64,000 bases of DNA from Cordylochernes scorpioides. Taxonomy: Eukaryota > Arthropoda > Arachnida > Pseudoscorpiones > Chernetidae. Below are positions 1 to 55,325 of the stretch, one piece after another. Position 1 is the stretch's first letter. Every line of letters begins with the position of its first letter. A program made the position numbers and the translations under genes. The stretch spans positions 27,096,947 to 27,160,946 of the forward strand of contig CP092865.1 of the NCBI GenBank assembly GCA_030710605.1, written 5' to 3'. The notes beneath the pieces were generated by a model. It was not told the origin of the DNA. It saw only the letters and a program-made list of their open reading frames with translations, and made no database searches.

Positions 1-69
1 TATGTGCCTTAAAAAGCTTACCTGAAAGCTTGTAGAAGGCGGAATAATAGTCCCCCAAAAATGCAATAT
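1..69. repeat. Left copy of a ~70-bp direct repeat flanking the LINE ORF1 block
   Basis: This segment matches 4051-4121 at roughly 80 percent; shared landmarks are 'CTGAAAGC', 'TGTAGAAGGCGGA' and 'CCAAAAATGCAATAT'. The right copy runs straight into a copy of the abundant inverted-repeat family, whose other members also carry 'AAAATGCAATAT' just upstream of 'AACAGCGGTATGG'. The LINE/PLE block therefore sits inside one such repeat, flanked by an unusually long duplication. The left copy may extend beyond the window. Confidence 0.7.
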
Positions 70-134
70 GAGGAGGAGTTCGCAGTTAGCTCTCTACCTG
101 TGCACATCTTTGCCCTCTTGCGCTCGCCCCTGCC

Positions 135-616
135 ATGGCTCCCTCTAGGAAGAAAAAGAAGAATGCCGAGAAGCCCCTCGTGACCCTCGCCCAACTTGAG
201 TTGGAGAATGAGGAGGTGATGGACGACTCCGCGAAGGCATTAATGCAACCTCACCCTACCGCCCAACATCACCTGTCCCAAATCATTGCGGGTCTCATCA
301 ATCTGCGGACCGAGCAGATCAAGGCCCTCATTGCCGAGGTAGAGAACCTCTCTGGCACCCTCGCGTCCTTTAAGGAACTGGACGAAATCAAGCCACAGAC
401 TGCCTGCCAATCCACTCAAACAAGCCCAGCTCCTTCCTGCAAGGAAACCAGCTCCGTGACCGACCCCACCAAGCCCGCCACTCCGGCTCCAACCAAAAGG
501 AAGCAGCCAGAGGCTCCCTACCCGCCCGCAAAAAGGACCAACTTCAAAGGTCCCGCAAAACCTGCGCCCACCCGCGTCCCCAAGCCTGCGGCCGCCCAAG
601 TGGTCCTCCATGGGGA
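135..616 (+). pseudogene. LINE ORF1 (gag-like), N-terminal part, interrupted by a PLE
   Basis: The reading frame opens at the ATG at 135 with a basic start (MAPSRKKKKNAEK). A predicted coiled-coil stretch follows at about residues 15-85 (regular Leu/Ile/Val/Glu pattern). A Pro/Ala/Thr/Lys-rich linker then runs to about residue 160, where LINE-like GC-rich coding stops near 616. The frame runs on to 698, but that part is the 5' end of the inserted PLE. The continuation of the same protein, with three zinc knuckles, resumes at about 3357. Proteins of this layout bind LINE RNA as part of the ribonucleoprotein in I/Jockey/R1-type elements (family knowledge). No ORF2 follows within the flanking direct repeats, so the copy is incomplete. 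GC content is well above that of the surroundings, as for other LINE pieces here. Confidence 0.75.
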
Positions 617-816
617 TAGGAGGCCTTTAACTGATTTTGTAAGGATGCGAATGTGTGAAAAGCAACCTTTAGTGCGGGCTCGTAGTAGCTTAAAATGAGT
701 TTCTGTGATGATTTTGGCAGAGTAGTGATTGCCGATCGGATCTTTCATACGCAAAGATGGAGGAATGAATCCTTGATTTACGCATATTTTGTTAAAGGCA
801 AGATGCTTCTTCAAGA

Positions 817-851
817 TGCATCCTCACAAAATCAGTTAAAAGCCTCCTATT
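817..851. repeat. Inverted-repeat arm in the PLE leader (partner at 617-652)
   Basis: The segment 'GCATCCTCACAAAATCAGTT' with flanking 'AAAAGCCTCCTA' is the reverse complement of the segment at the start of the element. The arms enclose about 165 bp and could fold the 5' end of the PLE RNA. Inverted partial copies at PLE 5' ends are common, so this may be a by-product of integration. Confidence 0.7.
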
Positions 852-861
852 TCACCTGTCC

Positions 862-2907
862 ATGCATTTAACAGATCAAGACATGGCTGATTTTCTTAGA
901 AGAATCACAGAAAACATCAAAAAGCAAGATATTACCATTACAGCTAGACATAATAAGAAACTAACACATTGGTCCAAAAAATATAACTTCAAACTCGCAC
1001 CGAACAATGCCCTACAAACAATAGTGAATCTCTCTAGTTTCCAGCCTACCACAGAGCATATAAACATATTATCTAAAGGACTTAAATATAGACTTCAAGC
1101 CAAAGCTGATGCCATAACAATCATAGCAGGGGTAGAATCGTCCATTTTCCGCTTAAATCATCAAGAGAAGTTTAGAATCAGACAGCACACCGCAGCAGTC
1201 CTTAGCGACCACAACCAAACCCAACATACCTACCAAATCAACAAAAATGTATTGCGCTCACTAACAACGAACAAAGATATAACCATCACCAAATCTGATA
1301 AAGGATCGCTTACAGTCATCATGAACACAGCCGAATACATTTCCAAGATGGACACAATCCTTGTTGATCCGCTCACGTTTACCCCCATATCCATAGATGA
1401 TCAGAATACCGCAACCTCTTCTTTTAAAAAAGAAATCAACAATCTGCTGAGGAAGAAAATCATTAGCTCCGAAGAATGCAAAAATATTTTGTCCAATATA
1501 ATGTCAAAAGCTTATATTTACGGCCTACCTAAATTACACAAAGAAGGTATCCCACTAAGACCCATCATCGCGTACCACCTCTCCCCTGCAGCTCCGTTAG
1601 CAACTTATCTAGCCAAAATACTGGCCCCGATGCTCAGAGATAGTGACTCCCCGACGACCATTTCCTCCATTCCTGTCTTCATAGGTAAGTTACAACAAAC
1701 AGCAGTTACACCTGGTACCATCATGGTCTCATTTGATGTTGTTAATTTATATCCCAGTCTCCCCCACCAGCTTATTTTAGACTGCACCACAGAATTTCTA
1801 ATTGAACAAGGTTGCCCCACAGACACCATTTCCAAACTCATTGCACTTATCAAAATCAGTCTTTGCCATAGTATTTTCAAATTCAACCAATCTTACTTCA
1901 AACAGACCAAAGGCACCCCTATGAGTAGCGCATTATCCTCTCCCCTTTCAGAAATAGTGATGCGCAAGATAGATAAACGTATAGTTAATATCTTCCCTAA
2001 CGACATTTTAATCTGGTCTAGATACATAGATGACGTCTTTGCTATAATCAATATTAACGCCTTTAATGATATACTCAACACATTGAATAATTTCTATCAA
2101 GACATAGACTTTACTTCCGAGACTGAAACATGTGACTCTTTGGCATTTTTGGACATACGCATAACAAAAACACGCAATAGATATAATACTGAAGTCTATT
2201 ATAAACCCACCTTTCACCCAATGTATATAAATTTCTCATCTTTCTGCCCATTAAGCCATAAAATCAATACTGTAAGAACCTTGTCCAAGAGAATATATAC
2301 CCACTGTTACACTGAGGAGTCAAAGCAGAAGGAAACAAATAACATAATTTCAAATTTAATGTCCTCTGGTTATCCTAAAAACTTTATTTTAAGGCATTTC
2401 CATAACCCATCCCGCACCAAGATATATGACAACTATAAATCCATCTGCACAATACCGTATTCCTTGCAAAGCATAAAAATAGCTAGAGAACTAAAGAACT
2501 TCGGCATCCGCACTTACTTTTCCAACACCCCTAGTATAGGCACTATCTTAAGGAACCCTATCACTAAAAACAACACGCCTCGGAACACTGTTCAAAGAAA
2601 CAATGCTGTTTATTCCATAAAATGCAACGATTGCGACGGTGTTTATGTAGGTGAAACTAGCCGTTACATTAAAGACAGAATACAGGAACACGACAGAAAC
2701 ATCAGACATAACGATCCGAAATCACTTATTGTCCAGCACATTTCACAGACAGGACATAGTTTCAACACAACTGATCCAAGATTACATTATTCTAATATAC
2801 CACATAAACACAAAAGATTGGTTGTCGAGGCCTTGCTATCTCTGAGGTATAATAGTATAAACAGACATATTGATGTACCTGAGCCGTATATAAGCTTATT
2901 ACATTAA
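862..2907 (+). CDS. PLE polyprotein: reverse transcriptase + GIY-YIG endonuclease (681 aa)
   Basis: This protein copies PLE RNA and nicks target DNA in the nucleus. An N-terminal region (about 1-210) precedes the reverse transcriptase. RT landmarks are YGLPKLHK with PLRPI near residue 217-235, motif A SFDVVNLYPSLP near 289, motif B GTPMSSALSSPLSE near 350, and catalytic YIDD near 387. FLDI and a YINFSSFCPLSHK stretch follow. After a ~130-residue linker comes a C-terminal GIY-YIG domain (about 582-670): VYSIKCNDC, then GVYVGETSRY, RIQEH and a late Glu in VVEALL, with a CxxC pair typical of endonuclease-plus PLEs. Length is a little under the usual 750-850 aa, so the true start may lie upstream or the N-terminus may be trimmed; 862 is the first ATG of the open frame. 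No stops or frameshifts are seen in the catalytic domains. The subfamily (Penelope, Poseidon or Neptune) cannot be settled by eye. Confidence 0.95.
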   Translation: MHLTDQDMADFLRRITENIKKQDITITARHNKKLTHWSKKYNFKLAPNNALQTIVNLSSFQPTTEHINILSKGLKYRLQAKADAITIIAGVESSIFRLNHQEKFRIRQHTAAVLSDHNQTQHTYQINKNVLRSLTTNKDITITKSDKGSLTVIMNTAEYISKMDTILVDPLTFTPISIDDQNTATSSFKKEINNLLRKKIISSEECKNILSNIMSKAYIYGLPKLHKEGIPLRPIIAYHLSPAAPLATYLAKILAPMLRDSDSPTTISSIPVFIGKLQQTAVTPGTIMVSFDVVNLYPSLPHQLILDCTTEFLIEQGCPTDTISKLIALIKISLCHSIFKFNQSYFKQTKGTPMSSALSSPLSEIVMRKIDKRIVNIFPNDILIWSRYIDDVFAIININAFNDILNTLNNFYQDIDFTSETETCDSLAFLDIRITKTRNRYNTEVYYKPTFHPMYINFSSFCPLSHKINTVRTLSKRIYTHCYTEESKQKETNNIISNLMSSGYPKNFILRHFHNPSRTKIYDNYKSICTIPYSLQSIKIARELKNFGIRTYFSNTPSIGTILRNPITKNNTPRNTVQRNNAVYSIKCNDCDGVYVGETSRYIKDRIQEHDRNIRHNDPKSLIVQHISQTGHSFNTTDPRLHYSNIPHKHKRLVVEALLSLRYNSINRHIDVPEPYISLLH

Positions 2908-3242
2908 TAGCCATTGATGTACCCCATGAATTCCCTGTTTTGTTCATTTATTTTAATATCCTTTTAAACTGTTTTACCTTATAAATACTCATAGTTTTAT
3001 CACAGTTTCCGTCGAACCGTAGGAACGTCCTTTCAGTCTTATTACGCTTTTATCTTAATACCTTGTAATATTCGTATATTATTCTTCTTAACAAATTTTA
3101 TTAATTTGCTTATGTCTCGATGTTCTTTTTAAACAAAAATCCTAAGTATTACCGATTATTTCAAAATTTTACAACTAATTTCTAATAATACATATGCAGA
3201 TTTATTCTTCGTATATATAGTGTATCATTTTTCTTATACAAT

Positions 3243-4050: not shown

Positions 4051-4121
4051 ATGTTTTGCCTTAAAATGCTTCTTTCTGAAAGCATGTAGAAGGCGGATTA
4101 ATTGTTCCAAAAATGCAATAT
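4051..4121. repeat. Right copy of the ~70-bp direct repeat
   Basis: Partner of 1-69. It leads directly into the inverted-repeat element at 4125 without a break, so this side is probably the continuous target. Confidence 0.7.
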
Positions 4122-4262
4122 AACAGCGGTATGGTAGATTAAACTGGCGAAACCGCTGAGAGGGTTCACAATTGATGAGCCAGGCCCTCTCATCAATTTT
4201 TCCATTGCAGTAAGGGCAGTAGAAATTGTTTAATATCAAAAAGAATCTTACGCCTTTAAAAT
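4122..4262 (+). repeat. Inverted-repeat family A2 copy with degenerate reordered hammerhead
   Basis: AGCGGT 4125-4130, A 4131, TGGTAGA 4132-4138, CTGGC 4144-4148, GAA 4149-4151 and ACCGCT 4152-4157 are intact. CUGAUGA has become TTGATGA (4172-4178), followed by GCCAG. Downstream is the family signature 'CCATTGCAGTAAGGGCAGTA' and an end related to 'ATAGTTTCGAATTTTGA'. A second, more damaged partial copy lies at 4381-4460. Confidence 0.8.
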
Positions 4263-9403: not shown

Positions 9404-10116
9404 TTTTAAATGAAAAATTATTATACTTTTGTATTTCTTTAAATATTTAGCATTTTTGGAAATTATTTCTTCATTTTCAAAGTTAGACTATTTCAAATGA
9501 GGACACTACTCTTCCATTGTTGAAGAGGCAACCTTAGTAAACTTTTTTCAAATCTTTGACTACGATTTTCAAAAGGCGATTTTTTATTTAATTAAAAAGA
9601 AATTGATGAAGATATGGATTGGTTGAATTATGATATGCTCAAAAATATATTTAAAATATCAATTATTAAACCTTTATTTACCATGAATTAATGAAAGTAT
9701 ACTTATTTGAGCGAATTTTGGAAGAAATTTTGGATGTCTTACAATTTTCGAAAGAAAAGATTTCTAGTAATTCAAAAAATAAAAGGAGAAGAAAATAATC
9801 TCGAATTCTGGAAACATAAGCTAAGAAAAAATGGCTGGTGTGATTTGAGAAACTAATTAATAAAAAAAACTCTTTGACCAGTGAAGACCTACGCGAAATA
9901 AGAATTGTTTAAAATAGTCAAAGATAAATTTTGGAAATCCTCGTATGAAAGAACTAAAGAAAGAAATTCAATGTCTAATTAGAGACAGATACAAATAGGC
10001 TGAAAAAAAGACCGTTGCTGGTATTGCAGGAAACAAGAATAAATTTGGTCTGGAGTTCTGACGAAATTCTAGATCCGCAATTTTTTGTCGATGATTCATG
10101 AAGTAAAGAAAGAAAG
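9404..10116. other. AT-rich, nothing recognised
   Basis: No open frame of interest, no motif and no repeat match that I can see. Confidence 0.5.
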
Positions 10117-10140
10117 TTGCTGACTACCAGCTGTGATCTG

Positions 10141-10800
10141 GCTGGCTGGGCTACGCTGGCGTGGTCTAACTGGGCTACCCTGTGTGGTTGGGCTACGCTG
10201 ACGTGGTCTAACTGGGCTACCCTGTGTGGTTGGGCTACGCTGGCGTGGTCTAACTGGGCTACCCTGTGTGGTTGGGCTACGCTGGCGTGGTCTAACTGGG
10301 CTACCCAGTGTGGTTGGGCTACGCTGGCGTCGTCTAACTGGGCTACCCTGTGTGGCTGGGCTACGCTGGCGTGGTCTAACTGGGCTACCCTGTATGGTTG
10401 GGCTACGCTGGCGTGGTCTAACTGGGCTGCCCTGTGTGGTTGGGCTACGCTGGCGTTGTCTAACTGGGCTACCCTGTGTGGTTGGGCTACGCTGGCGTGG
10501 TCTAACTGGGCTACCCTGTGTGGCTGGGCTACGCTGGCGTCGTCTAACTGGGCTACCCTGTATGGTTGGGCTACGCTGGCGTGGTCTAACTGGGCTACTC
10601 TATGTGGCCTGGCTGGTTGGGCTACCCTGTGTGGTTGGGCTACGCTGGCGTTGTCTAACTGGGCTACCCTGTGTGGCCTGGCTGGTTGGGCCACCCTGTG
10701 TGGTTGGGCTACGTTGGCGTGGTCTAACTGGGCTACCCTGTGTGGCCTGGCTGGTTGGGCTACCCTGTGTGGTTGGGCTACGTTGGCGTGGTCTAACTGC
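10141..10800. repeat. 42-bp minisatellite
   Basis: About 15 copies of a 42-bp GC-rich unit (GGGCTACGCTGGCGTGGTCT... ending CTGTGTGGTT), with some sub-unit variants 'GGCCTGGCTGGTT'. Because 42 is divisible by 3 and the unit lacks stops, several frames stay open on both strands: plus WATLAWSNWATLCG, minus VAQPHRVAQLDHAS. The open frames follow from unit length and need not mean coding. Confidence 0.95.
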
Positions 10801-10849
10801 CACCACCGCTTGTGCTGATTTATGTGTTAGCAGACTGTTACTGCCTTAC

Positions 10850-10945
10850 TGCAATGATACAAATAAAAGGAGGGCCTGGCTCATCAGTAGTGAACCTTCA
10901 CAAAAGTTTCGCTAGTTTAATCTATCATACTGCACTAATATTGTA
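10850..10945 (-). repeat. Degenerate family A copy
   Basis: 'ACTGCAATGATAC', 'GGGCCTGGCTCATCAGTAGTG' and 'CTAGTTTAATCTATCATACTGC' are the reverse complement of the reordered hammerhead region with several substitutions. Confidence 0.75.
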
Positions 10946-14289: not shown

Positions 14290-15110
14290 AGCACCTAGGT
14301 AGATGTGAGGGAGATTTAGACCGAAACTACAAATGTATATAACAGTAAACTATCATAGATTATCATTTTAGATAGGAGAGTAAATGGATACCTTGTTGAA
14401 CTTGGCTATAAGTCTCACGTCTATAGGAATCACCGAAAATACAAATGTATATAACAGTAAACTATCATAGATTATCATTTTAGATAGGAGAGTAAATGGA
14501 TACCTTGTTGAACTTGGCTATAAGTCTCACGTCTATAGGAATCACCGAAAATACAAATGTATATAACAGTAAACTATCATAGATTATAATTTTAGATAGG
14601 AGAGTAAAGGATACCTTGTTGAACTTGGCTATAAGTCTCACGTCTATAGGAATCACCGAAAATACAAATGTATATAACAGTAAACTATCATAGATTATCA
14701 TTTTAGATAGGAGAGTAAAGGATACCTTGTTGAACTTGGCTATAAGTCTCACGTCTATAGGAATCACCGAAAATACAAATGTATATAACAGTAAACTATC
14801 ATAGATTATCATTTTAGATAGGAGAGTAAAGGATACCTTGTTGAACTTGGCTATAAGTCTCACGTCTATAGGAATCACCGAAAATACAAATGTATATAAC
14901 AGTAAACTATCATAGATTATCATTTTAGATAGGAGAGTAAAGGATACCTTGTTGAACTTGGCTATAAGTCTCACGTCTATAGGAATCACCGAAAATACAA
15001 ATGTATATAGCAGGAGGATCATTGATTTTCATTTTAGATAGGAGAGTAAAGGATAGCTTGTTGAACTTGGCTATAAGTCTCATGTTTATAGGAATCACCG
15101 AAAATACAAA
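14290..15110. repeat. Satellite of ~109-112 bp, first array (~7 units)
   Basis: Successive 'CTTGTTGAACTTGGCTATAA' blocks are spaced 112, 111, 111, 111, 111 and about 109 bp. Units are nearly identical internally and drift toward the edge. The minus-strand frame across them (LLLYTFVFSVIPIDVRLIAK) is a by-product of the repeat, not a protein gene. Confidence 0.95.
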
Positions 15111-15111
15111 T

Positions 15112-15530
15112 GTATTAACACAAAGCAATAACGCGCCATCCATACATATAAAATAAAAGGATTTAAAAGCGCGAATGTTTCTTTTATACATAAAACGAAC
15201 TTCTACTGTCCTTACTGCGATGAAAAAATATATTGGGAGGGCTTGGCTCATCAGTGGTGATGAGAAACCATTTCTAGGATTCCATCCTTCTGTGTGACAT
15301 ATAAAAGCAGAATGATCCAATGCAGTATTAGAGCTCTGAGAAGCGGTCTGGTGGATTAAATTGGCGAAACCGCTGGGAGGGTTCACCACTGATGAGCCAA
15401 GCCCTCCCAATATATTTTTTCATCGCAGTAAGGACAGTAGAAGTTCGTTTTATGTATAAAAGAAACATTCGCGCTTTTAAATCCTTTTATTTTATATGTA
15501 TGGATGGCGCGTTATTGCTTTGTGTTAATT
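15112..15530 (+). mobile_element. Family A1 long-inverted-repeat element, complete
   Basis: The arms are about 125-145 bp: left 'TTAACACAAAGCAATAACGC' onward, right ending 'GCGTTATTGCTTTGTGTTAA'. It interrupts the satellite. The right half holds an intact reordered hammerhead (15342-15408). No protein is encoded. The sequence from 'ACCATTTCTAGGATTCCATC' to 'AAATCCTTTTATTTTATAT' is repeated almost identically at 15640-15868. Confidence 0.88.
15342..15408 (+). ncRNA. Reordered hammerhead core, copy A1-1 (intact)
   Basis: Helix III: AGCGGT 15342-15347 with ACCGCT 15369-15374. Site base C 15348, giving GUC. Helix I: TGGTGGA 15349-15355 with TTCACCA 15382-15388, 7 bp including one G-U. Helix II: TTGGC 15361-15365 with GCCAA 15396-15400. 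The core GAA (plus A15.1) precedes ACCGCT's first base, and CTGATGA is at 15389-15395. G10.1-C11.1 and A15.1-U16.1 are both present. The strand order is site, GAAA, CUGAUGA, not the canonical cyclic order. GGGAGGG/CCCTCCC (15375-15381 with 15402-15408) forms a competing outer stem. Confidence 0.8.
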
Positions 15531-15639
15531 TATTCCTAGTTGGCCTTGTCTTTATAGTTTGCTGAAGAGCATTGCTCGAAGCAAATATTTGAATGTAATT
15601 CTACTGTCCTATAAGCTTATGTCCATAGTTTACTGAAAA

Positions 15640-15868
15640 CCATTTCTAGGATTCCATCCTTCAGTGTGACATATAAAAGCAGAATGATCCAATGCAGTAT
15701 TAGAGCTCTGAGAAGCGGTCTGGTGGATTAAATTGGCGAAACCGCTGGGAGGGTTCACCACTGATGAGCCAAGCCCTCCCAATATATTTTTTCATCGCAG
15801 TAAGGACAGTAGAAGTTCGTTTTATGTATAAAAGAAACATTCGCGCTTTTAAATCCTTTTATTTTATA
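15640..15868 (+). mobile_element. Second, partial family A1 copy (right half)
   Basis: Almost identical to 15270-15495. It is preceded at 15528-15640 by unrelated sequence with 'TATAAGCTTATGTCCATAGT', which also borders other family A copies, and is followed directly by the second satellite array. Confidence 0.85.
15714..15780 (+). ncRNA. Reordered hammerhead core, copy A1-2 (intact)
   Basis: Same sequence as the copy at 15342 with all core bases and helices intact: AGCGGT 15714, C 15720, TGGTGGA 15721-15727, TTGGC 15733-15737, GAA 15738-15740, ACCGCT 15741-15746, TTCACCA 15754-15760, CTGATGA 15761-15767, GCCAA 15768-15772. Confidence 0.8.
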
Positions 15869-16193
15869 TACAAATGTATATAGCAGGAGGATCATTGATT
15901 TTCATTTTAGATAGGAGAGTAAAGGATACCTTGTTGAACTTGGCTATAAGTCTCATGTCTATAGGAATCACCGAAAATACAAATGTATATAGCAGGAGGA
16001 TCGTTGATTTTTATTTTAGATAGGAGAGTAAAGGATACCTTGTTGAACTTGGCTATAAGTCTCATGTCTATAGGAATCACCGAAAATACAAATGTATATA
16101 GCAGGAGGATCATTGATTTTCATTTTAGATAGGAGAGTAAAGGATACCTTGTTGAACTTGGCTATAAGTCTCATGTCTATAGGAATCACCTAC
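15869..16193. repeat. Satellite, second array (~3 units of 109 bp)
   Basis: Same unit as the first array in the variant 'GTATATAGCAGGAGGATCAT', which also ends array 1. The two arrays were one before the family A insertions. Confidence 0.93.
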
Positions 16194-16350
16194 GTATCTA
16201 CAATAATCCCTCTACCAAACCCTGTAGAGACGTGATGTACATATTCATTGTACACTGTTGTATATAATTATCAATTTAAAACAATAGTGCATATTGTGCA
16301 ATTTTGCATATATTGACAAAATGTCAATAAAATAATGTTAATTGTCATTG
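16194..16350 (+). repeat. Dispersed repeat with poly(A)-signal end
   Basis: 'TATTCATTGTACA', 'TTTTGCATATATTGACAA' and 'TGTCAATAAAAT' match 35110-35225. Possibly the 3' end of a retroelement. Confidence 0.55.
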
Positions 16351-35989: not shown

Positions 35990-36740
35990 TAAAAATAAAA
36001 ACTATTAAGATCATATTTTTAATTTTCCAAATAAAACAAACTTTTTACTGTCATTACTGCGTTGAAAAAATAGTGAAAGGGCTTGGTTAGTCAGTGGCGA
36101 ATCTTTCTAGCGGTTTTGCCAATTTGATCCACAGGACCGCTTTAAGGATTACAATATTGTATTGGAAGATTCTTTAAAGATCTCTCAAAGGTGATTGGTG
36201 GATTAATTAGGAGAAACCTCTGGGGTCTGATGAGCCAAGTCCATTTCTTTCATCGCAGTAAAGATAGAAGGCAAGATATTTTATTTGGAAAAGAAAAATT
36301 CGTTTTAAGCAGATTTATTTCTCATTATTAACACATAAATTAATACAAATATATAACGCGCCATCTATATATATAACGAATGAAAACATTAAGACGCGAA
36401 TGTTTATTTTCACAAATAAATCAAACTTCTACTGTCCTTACTGCGATGAAAAAATATTGGGAGAGCTTGGCTCATCAGTGGTGAACCCTCCCAGCGGTTT
36501 TGTCTATTTAAACCACCAGACCGCTTCTTTAGAGCTCCAATACTGTATTGGATCATTCTGATTTTATATGCTACACTGAAGGGTAAAACTCTGACGTTAC
36601 TACAATGATAAAATATAGGGAGAATCTATCTCATCATATTTTTGGTTATTACTTTATTTAAAAACTTACGCGCAATAAATAGTTACAAATTTTAATAATA
36701 GATGGCGCGTCAATCCATCAGATTTAATATATTAATATTT
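35990..36740. repeat. Cluster of decayed family A copies
   Basis: Minus-strand copies at about 36055-36150 and 36420-36530 and a plus copy at about 36190-36260 share 'ACTGTCCTTACTGCGATGAA' and 'CTTGGCTCATCAGTGGTGAA'. The core is changed in each (for example CUGACUA, or lost helix II). Termini 'ATGGCGCG' are near 36360 and 36705. Confidence 0.75.
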
Positions 36741-37249: not shown

Positions 37250-37505
37250 CCTGTTTCATGGTTTTTCAAGATGCTCCAAAGACCATCTTTTTTGGTCGTT
37301 GAGGTACAGCTTACACCACGCTGACGAGGGCCAACAGCCCGAAACGCGTACGTGGTTAGCTTTTCTTGAATAATCAAGAATGGGTATTTGGCCAATTCTG
37401 GAATATTTTTTTAATCAACTATTAGTTGATATTTATTCCGATAGATGGCCCAAGCCATCAGCAACTTTTAGTTTCACGATCAGGAAATGTCCTTTTCCTC
37501 AATAC
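37250..37505 (+). mobile_element. CCACG-family hammerhead element
   Basis: Leader 'TTTTTTGGTCGTTGAGGTAC', ribozyme, then 'CTTTTCTTGAATAATCAAGA', 'TTAGTTGATATTTATTCCGA' and 'ATGGCCCAAGCCATCAGCAA'. Matches 42.7 kb closely. Confidence 0.85.
37316..37355 (+). ncRNA. Hammerhead ribozyme motif, CCACG family (intact)
   Basis: Stem I CCACG 37316-37320 with CGTGG 37351-37355 (extendable by A-U). CTGACGA 37321-37327. Stem II GGGC-CAACA-GCCC 37328-37340. GAAA 37341-37344. Minimal helix III AC/GT around GC, then A37350 at the cleavage position. Canonical order, all core bases present. Such minimal hammerheads may act as dimers (family knowledge). Confidence 0.87.
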
Positions 37506-46499: not shown

Positions 46500-46870
46500 C
46501 TAATTGGAAATTAAATCATTTAAGCATGAATGTTTCTTTTAAATATAAAATAAACTTCTACTGTCCTTACTGCGATTAAAAAATATTGGAAGGACTTTTC
46601 TCATCATTTCTAAAATTCCACTCTTCACTGTAGCATATATAAGCAGAATCGTCCAATACAGTATTAGAGCTCAAAGAAGTGCGGTCTGGTAGATTAAATT
46701 GGTGAAACCGCTGGGAGGGTTCACCACTGATGAGTCAAGCCCTCCCAATATTTTTACATCGTAGTAAGGAGAGTAGAAGTTTGTTTTATGTGTAAAATTA
46801 GCATTCGTGCTTTATTGTTTTCATTTCCTAAATACAGATGGCGCGTTATTGCTTTATACTTAGCGTTCCC
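46500..46870 (+). mobile_element. Family A1 element with near-intact reordered hammerhead
   Basis: Left arm 'TACTGTCCTTACTGCGATTA', right arm 'AGTAAGGAGAGTAGAAGTTT', end 'CAGATGGCGCGTTATTGCTT'. Ribozyme region 46681-46748: GCGGT/ACCGC, C, TGGTAGA, TTGGT, GAAA, TTCACCA, CTGATGA, GTCAA. Helix II has two G-U pairs in place of G-C. Confidence 0.82.
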
Positions 46871-49609: not shown

Positions 49610-49850
49610 TGATGCATTAGCGAGCCTTCTGTCTAGCATCAATATCATTATAAAAGAAAAACCGAAAAATATAATGTAACAGCAGTATGGTAGATTAAAC
49701 TGGCGAAACCGCTGGGAGGGTTCACCACTGATGAGCCAGGCCCTCCCATTAATTTTCCATTGCAGTAAGGGCAGTAGATATTGTTTAATTTTCTAAAGAA
49801 TCATACGCGTCTATAATAGTTTCGAATTTACACCTATATAATCAAATAAG
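49610..49850 (+). mobile_element. Family A2 element with reordered hammerhead
   Basis: Left end 'GATGCATTAGCGAGCCTTCT'. The ribozyme region 49681-49747 has AGCAGT/ACCGCT (one mismatch), A, TGGTAGA, CTGGC/GCCAG, GAAA, TTCACCA, CTGATGA. The right arm ends 'CTATAATAGTTTCGAATTT'. Confidence 0.83.
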
Positions 49851-52214: not shown

Positions 52215-52440
52215 GTTGTATCAAAATACGAAACTATTTTAAACGCGTATGATTCTTTTTGAAATTAAACAATTTCTACTGCCCTTACTGCAATGGAAAA
52301 ATTAAAGGGAGGGCCTGGCTCATCAGTGGTGAACCCTCCCAGCGGTTTCGCCAGTTTAATCTACCATACCGCTGTTATATTTCATTTTTGGAACTTTTTC
52401 TTCTATTTGATAACAGATGGCGCGCTAGTGCATCATATTA
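52215..52440 (-). mobile_element. Family A2 element, near complete
   Basis: Ends 'AAACTATTTTAAACGCGTAT' and 'GATAACAGATGGCGCGCTAG'. Contains the best A2 ribozyme at 52307-52373. Confidence 0.85.
52307..52373 (-). ncRNA. Reordered hammerhead core, copy A2 (intact)
   Basis: On the minus strand: AGCGGT, A (GUA site), TGGTAGA, TTAAA, CTGGC, GAA, ACCGCT, GGGAGGG, TTCACCA, CTGATGA, GCCAG, G, CCCTCCC. Helix II is CTGGC/GCCAG, against TTGGC/GCCAA in A1: a compensatory pair change. Helix I has one A-C mismatch. Confidence 0.8.
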
Positions 52441-52489: not shown

Positions 52490-52800
52490 ATAGGGAAATA
52501 TTTAAGCACGACGGATGTTTCTTTTACACATAAAACAAACTTCCACTGTCCTTACTGCGATGAAAAATATTGGGAGGACTTGGCTAATCGGTTTGGCGTA
52601 TATAAGCAGAATCGTCCAATACAGTATCAGAGCTCTAAAAAAGCGATGTGATAGATTAATTTGGTGAAACCGCTGTGAGGGTTCACCACTGATGAGCCAA
52701 GCCCACTTAATATTTCTTCATTGAAGTAAGGACAGTAGAAGTTTGTTTTATGTGTAAAAGAAACGTTCGTGCTTAAATATTTTCTGTTCTTATAAAAACT
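52490..52800 (+). mobile_element. Family A1 element, ribozyme decayed
   Basis: 'TACTGCGATGAAAAATATTGG', 'GTGATAGATTAATTTGGTGA', 'CACCACTGATGAGCCAAGCC'. Helix III is broken (AGCGAT). Confidence 0.75.
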
Positions 52801-54489: not shown

Positions 54490-54800
54490 ATGAAAACATT
54501 AAAACACGCATGTTTCTTTTACACATAAAACAAACTTCTACTGTCCTTACTGCGATGAAAAATATTGGGAGGACTTGGCTCAGTGCTTATGTCCATAGTT
54601 TGATTGAATGCCATTTCTAAAATTCCACCCTTCAGTTTAAGTCTATATACTCAGAATGATCCAATACAGTATTAGAGCTCTAAGAAGCGGTCTGGTAGAT
54701 TACATTGGCGAAACCGGTGGAGGGTTCACCACTGATGAGTCATCGCAGTAATGACTTTAGAGGTTTGTTTTAGATGTAAAAGAAACATTTGTGTTTTGAT
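54490..54800 (+). mobile_element. Family A1 element, ribozyme nearly intact
   Basis: AGCGGT 54686-54691, C, TGGTAGA, TTGGC, GAAA, ACCGGT, TTCACCA, CTGATGA. One helix III mismatch, and helix II is shortened to GTCA. Confidence 0.78.
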
Positions 54801-55129: not shown

Positions 55130-55325
55130 GCGTGCCATCTGTCATAAGAAATTTGAACTATTTTTGATGCGTATGATTCTTTTTAAATTTAAATCAATTT
55201 TCTACTGCATTTACTGCAATGATAAAATAATGGGAGGGCCTGTCTCCTTAGTGGTGAACCCTCCCAGCGGTTTCACCAGTTTAATCTATCATACCGCTGT
55301 AATATCGCATTTTTCGGCCTTCCTT
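55130..55325 (-). repeat. Family A2 copy, ribozyme decayed
   Basis: 'GGGAGGGCCTGTCTCCTTAG' shows the CUGAUGA segment mutated. Helix III is intact. Confidence 0.75.

What the first reader, a model, noticed from the sequence alone, without database searches (positions are those of the whole stretch)
15342..15780. Hammerhead core in a non-canonical strand order in the window's most abundant repeat
Two nearly identical copies carry every hammerhead element. GUC site: AGCGGT then C. Helix I: TGGTGGA with TTCACCA. CTGATGA stands directly between the helix I strand and the helix II strand GCCAA. TTGGC is directly followed by GAA, then helix III strand ACCGCT. The universally conserved G10.1-C11.1 and A15.1-U16.1 pairs are present. 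The segments come in the order site - GAAA - CUGAUGA. Types I, II and III are circular permutations of CUGAUGA - GAAA - site, and this order is not. It would fold as two hairpins whose loops pair twice with each other, or between two molecules. The chance of all junctions matching exactly is very low. Whether it cleaves is unknown, and a 7-bp GGGAGGG/CCCTCCC stem competes.
Basis: partly seen in the sequence, partly recalled or inferred. Interest (0 to 1): 0.96.

Follow-up and report, generated by a model that had tools for sequence, protein, structure and literature searches.

The report
Rearranged hammerhead ribozyme in pseudoscorpion repeats
An abundant mobile repeat in a pseudoscorpion genome carries what looks like a self-cutting RNA (hammerhead ribozyme) whose parts are strung together in an unusual order that was previously known mainly from anonymous environmental RNA, which gives that odd ribozyme form a likely home in an animal genome.

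Summary
Window 15342-15408 and 15714-15780 are identical 67-nt cores with every hammerhead element in the order site - GAAA - CUGAUGA. The order is already published: it is the type-SGC hammerhead of Eckert et al. 2023 (PMC10085705), shown there to cleave. What is new is the setting. The genome is Cordylochernes scorpioides. The core sits in 367-373-nt repeats, tandem, inverted and dispersed, some flanked by target-site duplications; the window's insertion has one of 12 bp. CTGATGAGCC occurs 129,408 times, the exact 67-nt core 10,069 times, a compensated variant core 5,622 times. Between subfamilies, three double changes keep stems I, II and IV paired, three more keep an outer stem, and none of 13 catalytic positions changes; these are few evolutionary events. 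The same genome carries a canonical type-I hammerhead repeat (15,769 copies of its core). Best reading: a retrozyme-like element that uses a type-SGC hammerhead to cut its RNA into unit-length pieces. Cleavage, circles and the reverse transcriptase used are inferred, not shown.

The parts
15104..15115 (+). left target-site duplication ATACAAATGTAT in a 109-nt tandem repeat
   Evidence: the 109/111-nt repeat families
15116..15260 (-). inverted partial unit (unit positions about 42-193), outer arm of the insertion
15265..15867 (+). about 1.6 tandem units (cores 372 nt apart) of subfamily B
15342..15408 (+). type-SGC hammerhead core, copy 1; predicted cut between C15348 and T15349
15342..15347 (+). 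stem III 3' strand AGCGGT (pairs 15369-15374); ends in U16.1
15348..15348 (+). H17, cleavage-site C (A in subfamily A)
15349..15355 (+). stem I 5' strand TGGTGGA (pairs 15382-15388)
15361..15365 (+). stem II 3' strand TTGGC (pairs 15396-15400)
15366..15369 (+). GAAA: G12 A13 A14 and A15.1
15375..15381 (+). stem IV 5' strand GGGAGGG (pairs 15402-15408); directly abuts stem III
15382..15388 (+). stem I 3' strand TTCACCA
15389..15395 (+). CUGAUGA core strand
15396..15400 (+). stem II 5' strand GCCAA
15402..15408 (+). stem IV 3' strand CCCTCCC
15599..15609 (+). outer stem V 5' strand TTCTACTGTCC (pairs 15804-15814)
15613..15628 (+). AAGCTTATGTCCATAG, block conserved in A, B and C; 43,811 exact copies genome-wide
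15672..15679 (+). TATA-like TATAAAAG upstream of copy 2; TATA-like letters at corresponding places in A, B and C (promoter role inferred)
15714..15780 (+). type-SGC hammerhead core, copy 2; predicted cut after 15720
15804..15814 (+). outer stem V 3' strand GGACAGTAGAA
15868..15879 (+). right target-site duplication ATACAAATGTAT
4125..4191 (+). older subfamily-A core with GAGAGGG/CCCTCTC in stem IV
10869..10933 (-). older decayed core
36076..36141 (-). older decayed core
36459..36525 (-). older decayed core
46681..46746 (+). older core
49681..49747 (+). older subfamily-A core
52307..52373 (-). subfamily-A core; passes the SGC motif scan
52642..52706 (+). older decayed core
54686..54764 (+). older core, partly deleted downstream; passes the SGC motif scan (site 54692, GAAA 54710, CUGA 54732)
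55232..55298 (-). older subfamily-A core

Best explanation
The core is a type-SGC (non-circularly permuted) hammerhead ribozyme inside a retrozyme-like, non-autonomous retroelement of a pseudoscorpion. SHOWN: sequence anatomy, abundance, tandem units of 367-373 nt, inverted arms, target-site duplications in a minority of insertions, compensatory changes between subfamilies. INFERRED: the RNA of a tandem array folds each core into two hairpins (stems III and IV) whose loops join through stems I and II, cuts after H17 (C15348 / C15720), and yields unit-length RNA with 5'-OH and cyclic phosphate ends; these are ligated to circles or used directly; a reverse transcriptase, possibly of the Penelope-like elements present in this genome, copies RNA of the element back into DNA, often from both sides of a break, giving inverted, 5'-truncated arms.
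For: Order, core letters and four stems match the published, experimentally tested type SGC (main text of PMC10085705). 0 motif hits in 10.56 Mb shuffled, one strand. Minimum-energy fold contains hairpins III and IV, z -2.46 (stems I and II are pseudoknotted and cannot appear there). Subfamily consensuses from 113 cores: old B to A changes C7A, T20C, A59G; to young B A12G (makes a mismatch a pair); to C G9A, T11 deleted, A19T, G35A, C46T, C66T; so 20-59, 9-46 and 35-66 are compensated and 0 of 13 catalytic positions change; chance of random columns holding that many proposed pairs 0.034 and 0.0059 (computed after the changes were seen). Alignment of 48 cores: 37 cells changed on both sides against 15.4 in shuffles, 0 of 500, at most 12 in slid controls. 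With outer stem V, 33 rows: 45 against 12.1, 0 of 500, slid at most 12. H17 is C 70, A 39, G 2, T 1, gap 1 of 113. Tandem units A 371, B 373, C 367. Exact core counts 10,069 (B) and 5,622 (C), controls 0. TSDs of at least 8 nt in 7 of 58 insertions (3% in shuffled flanks), among them 12 nt in the window and 17 nt in L018. Of 30 distinct 5' breaks near the core, 19 fall at unit positions 47-77 (8.0 expected if even, p 3e-5, interval chosen after seeing the data), as if reverse transcription stalled at the fold. The same genome has a canonical type-I hammerhead repeat with 338-nt spacing and inverted neighbours.
Against: No cleavage or RNA data. The compensations are few evolutionary events (two branches); the number of pairs with a double change (8; 81 and 150 of 500 shuffles as high) and of pair types (208 and 418 of 500) does not exceed shuffles, and two slid structures also reach 8 such pairs. 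In A, C and old B, pair 12-43 is A-C, and C lacks one base of stem I, so stem I is short. N7 of the core, free in hammerheads, varies in only 2 of 66 copies, no more than its neighbours. Within young B the double mutant 35A+66T occurs once in the genome, so no compensation is seen among decaying copies; single mutants were not counted. All 13 catalytic letters and a permitted H17 are kept in 21 of 33 cores from the window and 20 pieces, 17 of 33 anchor-chosen and 40 of 47 others. A derivative without the GAAA block exists (4 copies). Stem III abuts stem IV with no linker, which Eckert et al. call geometrically not obvious. 3' ends of the genomic pieces lie at unit positions 130-200 in 64 of 89 and at the predicted cut (1-20) in 0 of 89, so a linear RNA ending at the cut is not what is inserted; a circle or a longer RNA is needed.
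Confidence: 0.8

Rival explanations
1. Ribozyme-shaped but no longer a cis ribozyme: the fold is kept for another RNA role (reverse-transcriptase recognition, RNA stability), or it cuts only between two molecules or two tandem units.
For: Stem III abuts stem IV with no linker; stem I is 3-4 bp plus mismatch in A and C; other conserved blocks and outer stem V show the RNA has further structure; axolotl retrozyme hammerheads work better as dimers (passages of PMC7229834).
Against: All 13 catalytic letters are kept in every subfamily consensus, which a mere fold would not need; five published type-SGC RNAs cleaved in vitro; a few predicted ones have no linker, though I did not see whether one of those was tested.
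Confidence: 0.12
2. Ordinary SINE-like element: AGCGG and GGTTCACYAC are pol III A and B boxes; the hammerhead likeness is coincidence.
For: Subfamily C reads TAGTAGAGCGG ... GGTTCACTAC about 43 nt apart, close to A- and B-box consensus (consensus recalled, not from a call).
Against: A and B depart from the A box; ARAGORN reports no tRNA here; boxes do not predict the pairing of AGCGGT with ACCGCT, of TTGGC with GCCAA, or the CUGAUGA and GAAA junctions; 0 chance hits in 10.56 Mb shuffled.
Confidence: 0.05
3. DNA-level foldback element or satellite whose inverted repeats, not RNA, explain pairing.
For: 97% complementary 159-nt arms around the core; 20 of 58 insertions hold pieces in both orientations.
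Against: The arms are copies of the same unit in opposite orientation with variable truncation, not fixed termini; 38 of 58 insertions have one orientation only; the four core stems lie inside one unit and cross each other, which DNA hairpins would not do.
Confidence: 0.03

Closest known systems
Type-SGC hammerhead ribozyme (HRIMA-1 motif and variants; Eckert et al. 2023, PMC10085705)
   Same: Block order site-GAAA-CUGANGA, conserved core, stems I-III, short stem I to stem II linker, fourth stem joining the other sides of stems I and II; a zero-nucleotide junction between stem III and the fourth stem occurs in a few published cases.
   Different: The paper says its RNAs were found in no genome of a known organism except one type-GCS candidate, and almost all its motifs only in metatranscriptomes; here the core is in a named animal's chromosomes in very high copy; linker 5 nt against typically 3. 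I could not compare sequences (supplement not available).
Metazoan non-LTR retrozymes (PMC7229834, passages)
   Same: Short tandem units of 150-450 bp, low GC, dispersed, TSDs longer than 4 bp when present, one hammerhead per unit; very high copy is not unique (a section heading there speaks of up to 120,000 in the axolotl genome).
   Different: Theirs carry type-I hammerheads; here type SGC, plus inverted arms in about a third of insertions.
Canonical type-I hammerhead repeat of the same genome (window 37321, 42739)
   Same: Tandem units (338 nt in listed arrays), head-to-head neighbours, thousands of copies.
   Different: Order CGS with a tiny stem III; a different sequence; weak Rfam Hammerhead_HH9 match.
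Penelope-like elements with hammerheads
   Same: A Penelope-like ORF lies in this window; inverted truncated copies and variable TSDs are recalled features of that class.
   Different: The motif scan reported no hammerhead of any order within window 1-3000; only a 65-nt leader similarity to a subfamily-A element.

Membership tests
Type-SGC hammerhead | 5'-3' block order S, G, C | tested here: met
Type-SGC hammerhead | CUGANGA, GAAA, A15.1-U16.1, G10.1-C11.1, NUH site | tested here: met
   all four subfamily consensuses of 113 cores; individual copies decay: 78 of 113 complete (38 of 66 among window, pieces and anchor-chosen loci)
Type-SGC hammerhead | stems I, II, III | tested here: met
   82.8, 89.2 and 90.6% of cells paired in 48 cores; stem I weakest, with no standard pair at 12-43 in 37 of 48
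Type-SGC hammerhead | fourth stem joining the other sides of stems I and II | tested here: met
   GGGAGGG/CCCTCCC, 91.4% of cells paired, compensated in C
Type-SGC hammerhead | covariation | tested here: met
   compensated pairs in I, II and IV (few events; none between consensuses in III); two of five measures do not exceed shuffles
Type-SGC hammerhead | self-cleavage at the predicted site, lost on G5 mutation | not testable with these tools
   bench test needed
Rfam hammerhead families | score at or above gathering cut-off | tested here: not met
   no gathering match; best Hammerhead_II 12.2 bits against 37
Metazoan retrozyme | tandem units of 150-450 bp, low GC | tested here: met
   three example units of 367-373 nt, GC 0.345-0.375
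Metazoan retrozyme | type-I hammerhead in each unit | tested here: not met
   type SGC instead
Metazoan retrozyme | TSDs longer than 4 bp when present | tested here: met
   at least 8 nt in 7 of 58 insertions, (two of the seven look like copies of one insertion, one is AT-simple)
Metazoan retrozyme | expressed as linear and circular RNA | not testable with these tools
   no RNA data
tRNA-derived SINE | tRNA-like head with A and B boxes | tested here: inconclusive
   box-like letters best in C, by eye against recalled consensus; no tRNA call by ARAGORN

The most novel reading that the evidence does not exclude
A whole lineage of animal retroelements runs on a non-circularly permuted hammerhead: the type-SGC ribozyme replaces the type-I ribozyme in an otherwise retrozyme-like cycle, cuts in cis although stems III and IV abut without a linker, and arachnid (or other arthropod) genomes are a natural DNA reservoir of the type-SGC ribozymes seen until now as anonymous RNA.
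Probability: 0.4. Interest if true: 0.88.

Novelty: new variant of a known kind. Interest (0 to 1): 0.76.

Why it matters
Non-circular permutations of hammerheads were known from environmental sequences without a host. A named animal with thousands of exactly intact copies in at least two subfamilies lets one test host, expression, circles and mobility, and supplies natural variants (zero-linker ones) for structure work. Two hammerhead topologies in one genome, in two repeats of similar architecture, suggest that the element needs a self-cleaving ribozyme but not a particular strand order.

Tried and rejected
Pure chance: rejected. Tandem or inverted neighbours restoring a canonical order: rejected by reasoning, since the cyclic order site-GAAA-CUGAUGA stays non-canonical in any head-to-tail array and opposite strands cannot supply it. 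Relatives in prokaryote and viral collections by a 20-mer: 0 in viral contigs, 2 in genome contigs, which I took for chance and did not read. Sequence strings in papers: one hit, by its title unrelated. Position-wise conservation: catalytic positions depart in 5.1% against 8.6% of letters elsewhere in 66 cores, with no excess at N7; too weak to argue from. Within-family compensation: one double mutant in the genome, no support. 5' ends exactly at the predicted cut: a few pieces start at unit positions 7-9, not enough to claim; 3' ends at the cut: 0 of 89. Competing-stem idea: replaced by the fourth stem of the published fold. Exact genome-wide count of the subfamily-A core: never obtained.

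How samples were chosen, and rows dropped. L003 and L007 (overlap other loci) and L029, L030 (bacterial) were left out of the profiles. L001-L008, L031-L070 and L072-L090 were chosen by CTGATGAGCC and are biased for that stretch; L071 was chosen as an array. L091-L118 were chosen because one search's capped list showed no CTGATGAGCC there, a bias against intact cores; L119-L130 only by the upstream 16-mer. The 66 cores are 33 from the window and L009-L028 and 33 from L091-L130. Before A1, a length filter (60-80 nt) dropped 10 of 91 rows, the 4 D copies among them; of the 51 distinct sequences left, 3 truncated ones were left out. In A2, 33 of 34 (L128 left out, its end misplaced). One search used 113 rows with at most 4 gaps of 168 profile hits. 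L131-L190 (60 places, start of contig C1) served the break analysis only; 4 repeats of the same insertion were removed from 34 breaks, and two breaks at 339-340 lie close to the edge of the fetched stretch.

Full report
What is there. The window carries two identical 67-nt cores (15342-15408 and 15714-15780) in one insertion inside a 109-nt tandem repeat. The insertion runs from about 15116 to 15867, consists of an inverted partial unit followed by about 1.6 direct units, and is flanked by ATACAAATGTAT on both sides. The two copies named in the finding are therefore neighbouring tandem units of one insertion, 372 nt apart.

Genome. A search with the window's reverse-transcriptase ORF returned proteins of Cordylochernes scorpioides. 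Of the 20 contig lengths of G000 printed, 16 recur exactly as contig lengths of those proteins (for example 223678689, 208110490, 173459892), 3 do not appear in the listing, and one (C11, 96166042) has a near value of 96169140. The host is thus this pseudoscorpion, in the same or a near-identical assembly (2.62 Gb, 24 contigs).

The repeat. CTGATGAGCC occurs 129,408 times (reversed control 681), a downstream 16-mer 54,984 times (control 2), an upstream 16-mer 43,811 times (control 1). A core profile finds 21 full cores in 20 arbitrary 10-kb pieces, which extrapolates very roughly to 275,000. Three main subfamilies, A, B and C, have example units of 371, 373 and 367 nt; the core is more alike between them (A/B 63 of 69, B/C 61 of 73, A/C 59 of 73 columns) than the rest of the unit (190 of 318, 171 of 320, 167 of 312). 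An array on contig C9 holds eight direct B cores at 373-374-nt spacing, and some listed C cores run at about 368 nt. Of 58 insertions examined, 38 show one orientation and 20 hold pieces in both, mostly head to head with 3' ends outward. Seven of 58 have an exact flank duplication of at least 8 nt, against 3% in shuffled flanks; two of the seven (L002, L008) look like copies of one insertion and one (L004) is AT-simple sequence.

The fold. The order of blocks is site, GAAA, CUGAUGA. Eckert, Friedrich, Weinberg and Weinberg (PMC10085705; I read parts 1-6 of 8, which hold the main text up to the start of the references; supplement not held) name this type SGC, report 583 predicted examples, in vitro cleavage at the predicted site for five, and, for one, disruption and rescue of four stems. 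The fourth joins the other sides of stems I and II, which is where GGGAGGG/CCCTCCC sits here. They note a few cases in which this stem abuts stem III with no nucleotide between, as here, and call the geometry not obvious. [quoted passage not shown]

Tests of the fold. Single-strand folding gives hairpins III and IV, with a few extra pairs in the loops (z -2.46, 5 of 200 shuffles as stable). On 48 distinct cores the proposed pairs form in 88.4% of cells, 37 cells are changed on both sides (shuffled mean 15.4; 0 of 500 as high) and slid structures reach 12 at most; but the number of pairs with a double change (8) and of pair types is not above shuffles. Consensuses of 113 cores (36 A, 37 B, 17 C, 23 old B or other) differ by ten changes: three compensated pairs, one change that turns a mismatch into a pair, C to A at H17, one linker base, one deletion in stem I, and none at 13 catalytic positions. 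An outer stem, TTCTACTGTCC with GGACAGTAGAA, becomes CTCTACAGACC with GGTCTGTAGAG in C, three more compensated pairs. These are few independent events, on two branches of the family, so the covariation is supportive rather than overwhelming. Against it: pair 12-43 is A-C in A, C and old B; N7 does not vary more than its neighbours; and decaying copies show no compensation.

Traces of the RNA stage. Of 60 copies anchored just downstream of the core, 26 run through it and 34 break within the region examined. After removing 4 repeats of the same insertion, 19 of 30 breaks fall at unit positions 47-77 (8.0 expected, p 3e-5) and 10 of 30 at 68-77 (2.6 expected), the 3' edge of the fold (intervals chosen after seeing the data). 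A reverse transcriptase stalling at the folded ribozyme would do this; other causes are not excluded. The 3' ends of genomic pieces tell otherwise about the cut: 64 of 89 lie at 130-200 and none at 1-20, so what is inserted is not a linear RNA that ends at the cut; a circle or a longer transcript is needed.

A control inside the genome. The same scan found canonical type-I hammerheads at window 37321 and 42739 and in L014, L017 and L028. One family's core occurs 15,769 times, with 338-nt spacing in listed arrays and head-to-head neighbours. So the genome hosts retrozyme-like repeats with a canonical hammerhead, and this one with the permuted order. Rfam misses both at its cut-offs, with a weak hit to the canonical one (22.7 bits against 52) and only a chance-level hit to the SGC core (12.2 bits, E 3.8).

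Mechanism. Most likely each unit's transcript, perhaps from the TATA-like site about 30-42 nt upstream of the core, is cut at the cores into unit-length RNA, and these RNAs, as circles, are the mobile form, as proposed for metazoan retrozymes (passages of PMC7229834). A Penelope-like reverse transcriptase is a plausible donor: its ORF lies at 796-2907 (RVT_1), and its leader (5-69) resembles the sequence upstream of an A element (4057-4121, 84%), as a template switch would leave. Cleavage, circles, promoter and enzyme are inferred.

Prior art. Searches of the open PMC library for hammerheads with SINEs or molluscs, topology, retrozymes in arthropods, post-2022 permuted hammerheads, the type-SGC names, and Cordylochernes or pseudoscorpions and for sequence strings showed type SGC only in PMC10085705 (3 papers, the other two by their listings hold only the phrase non-circular permutation). 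The listings are capped (20 of 552,909 and 20 of 1,788); in them one paper names Cordylochernes once and none pairs it with ribozymes. The library is partial and lacks preprints. PMC11300833 was seen in passages only: its pseudoknot hammerhead replaces stem II and is a different thing.

Verdict. Novelty: new variant of a known kind.

Noticed in passing
window 37305-37370 and around 42739 (+); L014, L017, L028: Canonical type-I hammerheads with very short stem III in repeats; one family's core CTGAYGAGGGCCAACAGCCCGAAAC occurs 15,769 times, in some listed arrays at 338-nt spacing; a second family (L017, L028) has CTGACGAGGGCCATTAGCCCGAAACC. The one tested (37305-37370) is below Rfam's gathering score.
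   Followed up: partly
window 90-698 and 796-2907: Penelope-like element: open ORF with RVT_1 and a C-terminal part that looks like GIY-YIG by eye (not a Pfam hit); 92% identical over 86% to a protein from the same genome's largest contig.
   Followed up: partly
window 5-69 and 4057-4121: Leader of the Penelope-like element is 84% like the sequence just upstream of a subfamily-A element, a possible template-switch chimera.
   Followed up: partly
L001, L005, L036, L038: Derivative of the repeat (type D) that has lost the GAAA block and so the ribozyme; four copies seen, all near the start of contig C1.
   Followed up: no
window 14500-15115 and 15868-16206: 109/111-nt tandem satellite into which the element inserted.
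   Followed up: no
units A, B, C (L048, L071, L018): Other conserved blocks in the unit: a GCKGAAGAGC...GCTCGAWGC hairpin and AAGCTTATGTCCATAGTT; roles unknown.
   Followed up: no
window 9975-10826: Tandem repetitive sequence readable as open frames in several frames on both strands.
   Followed up: no
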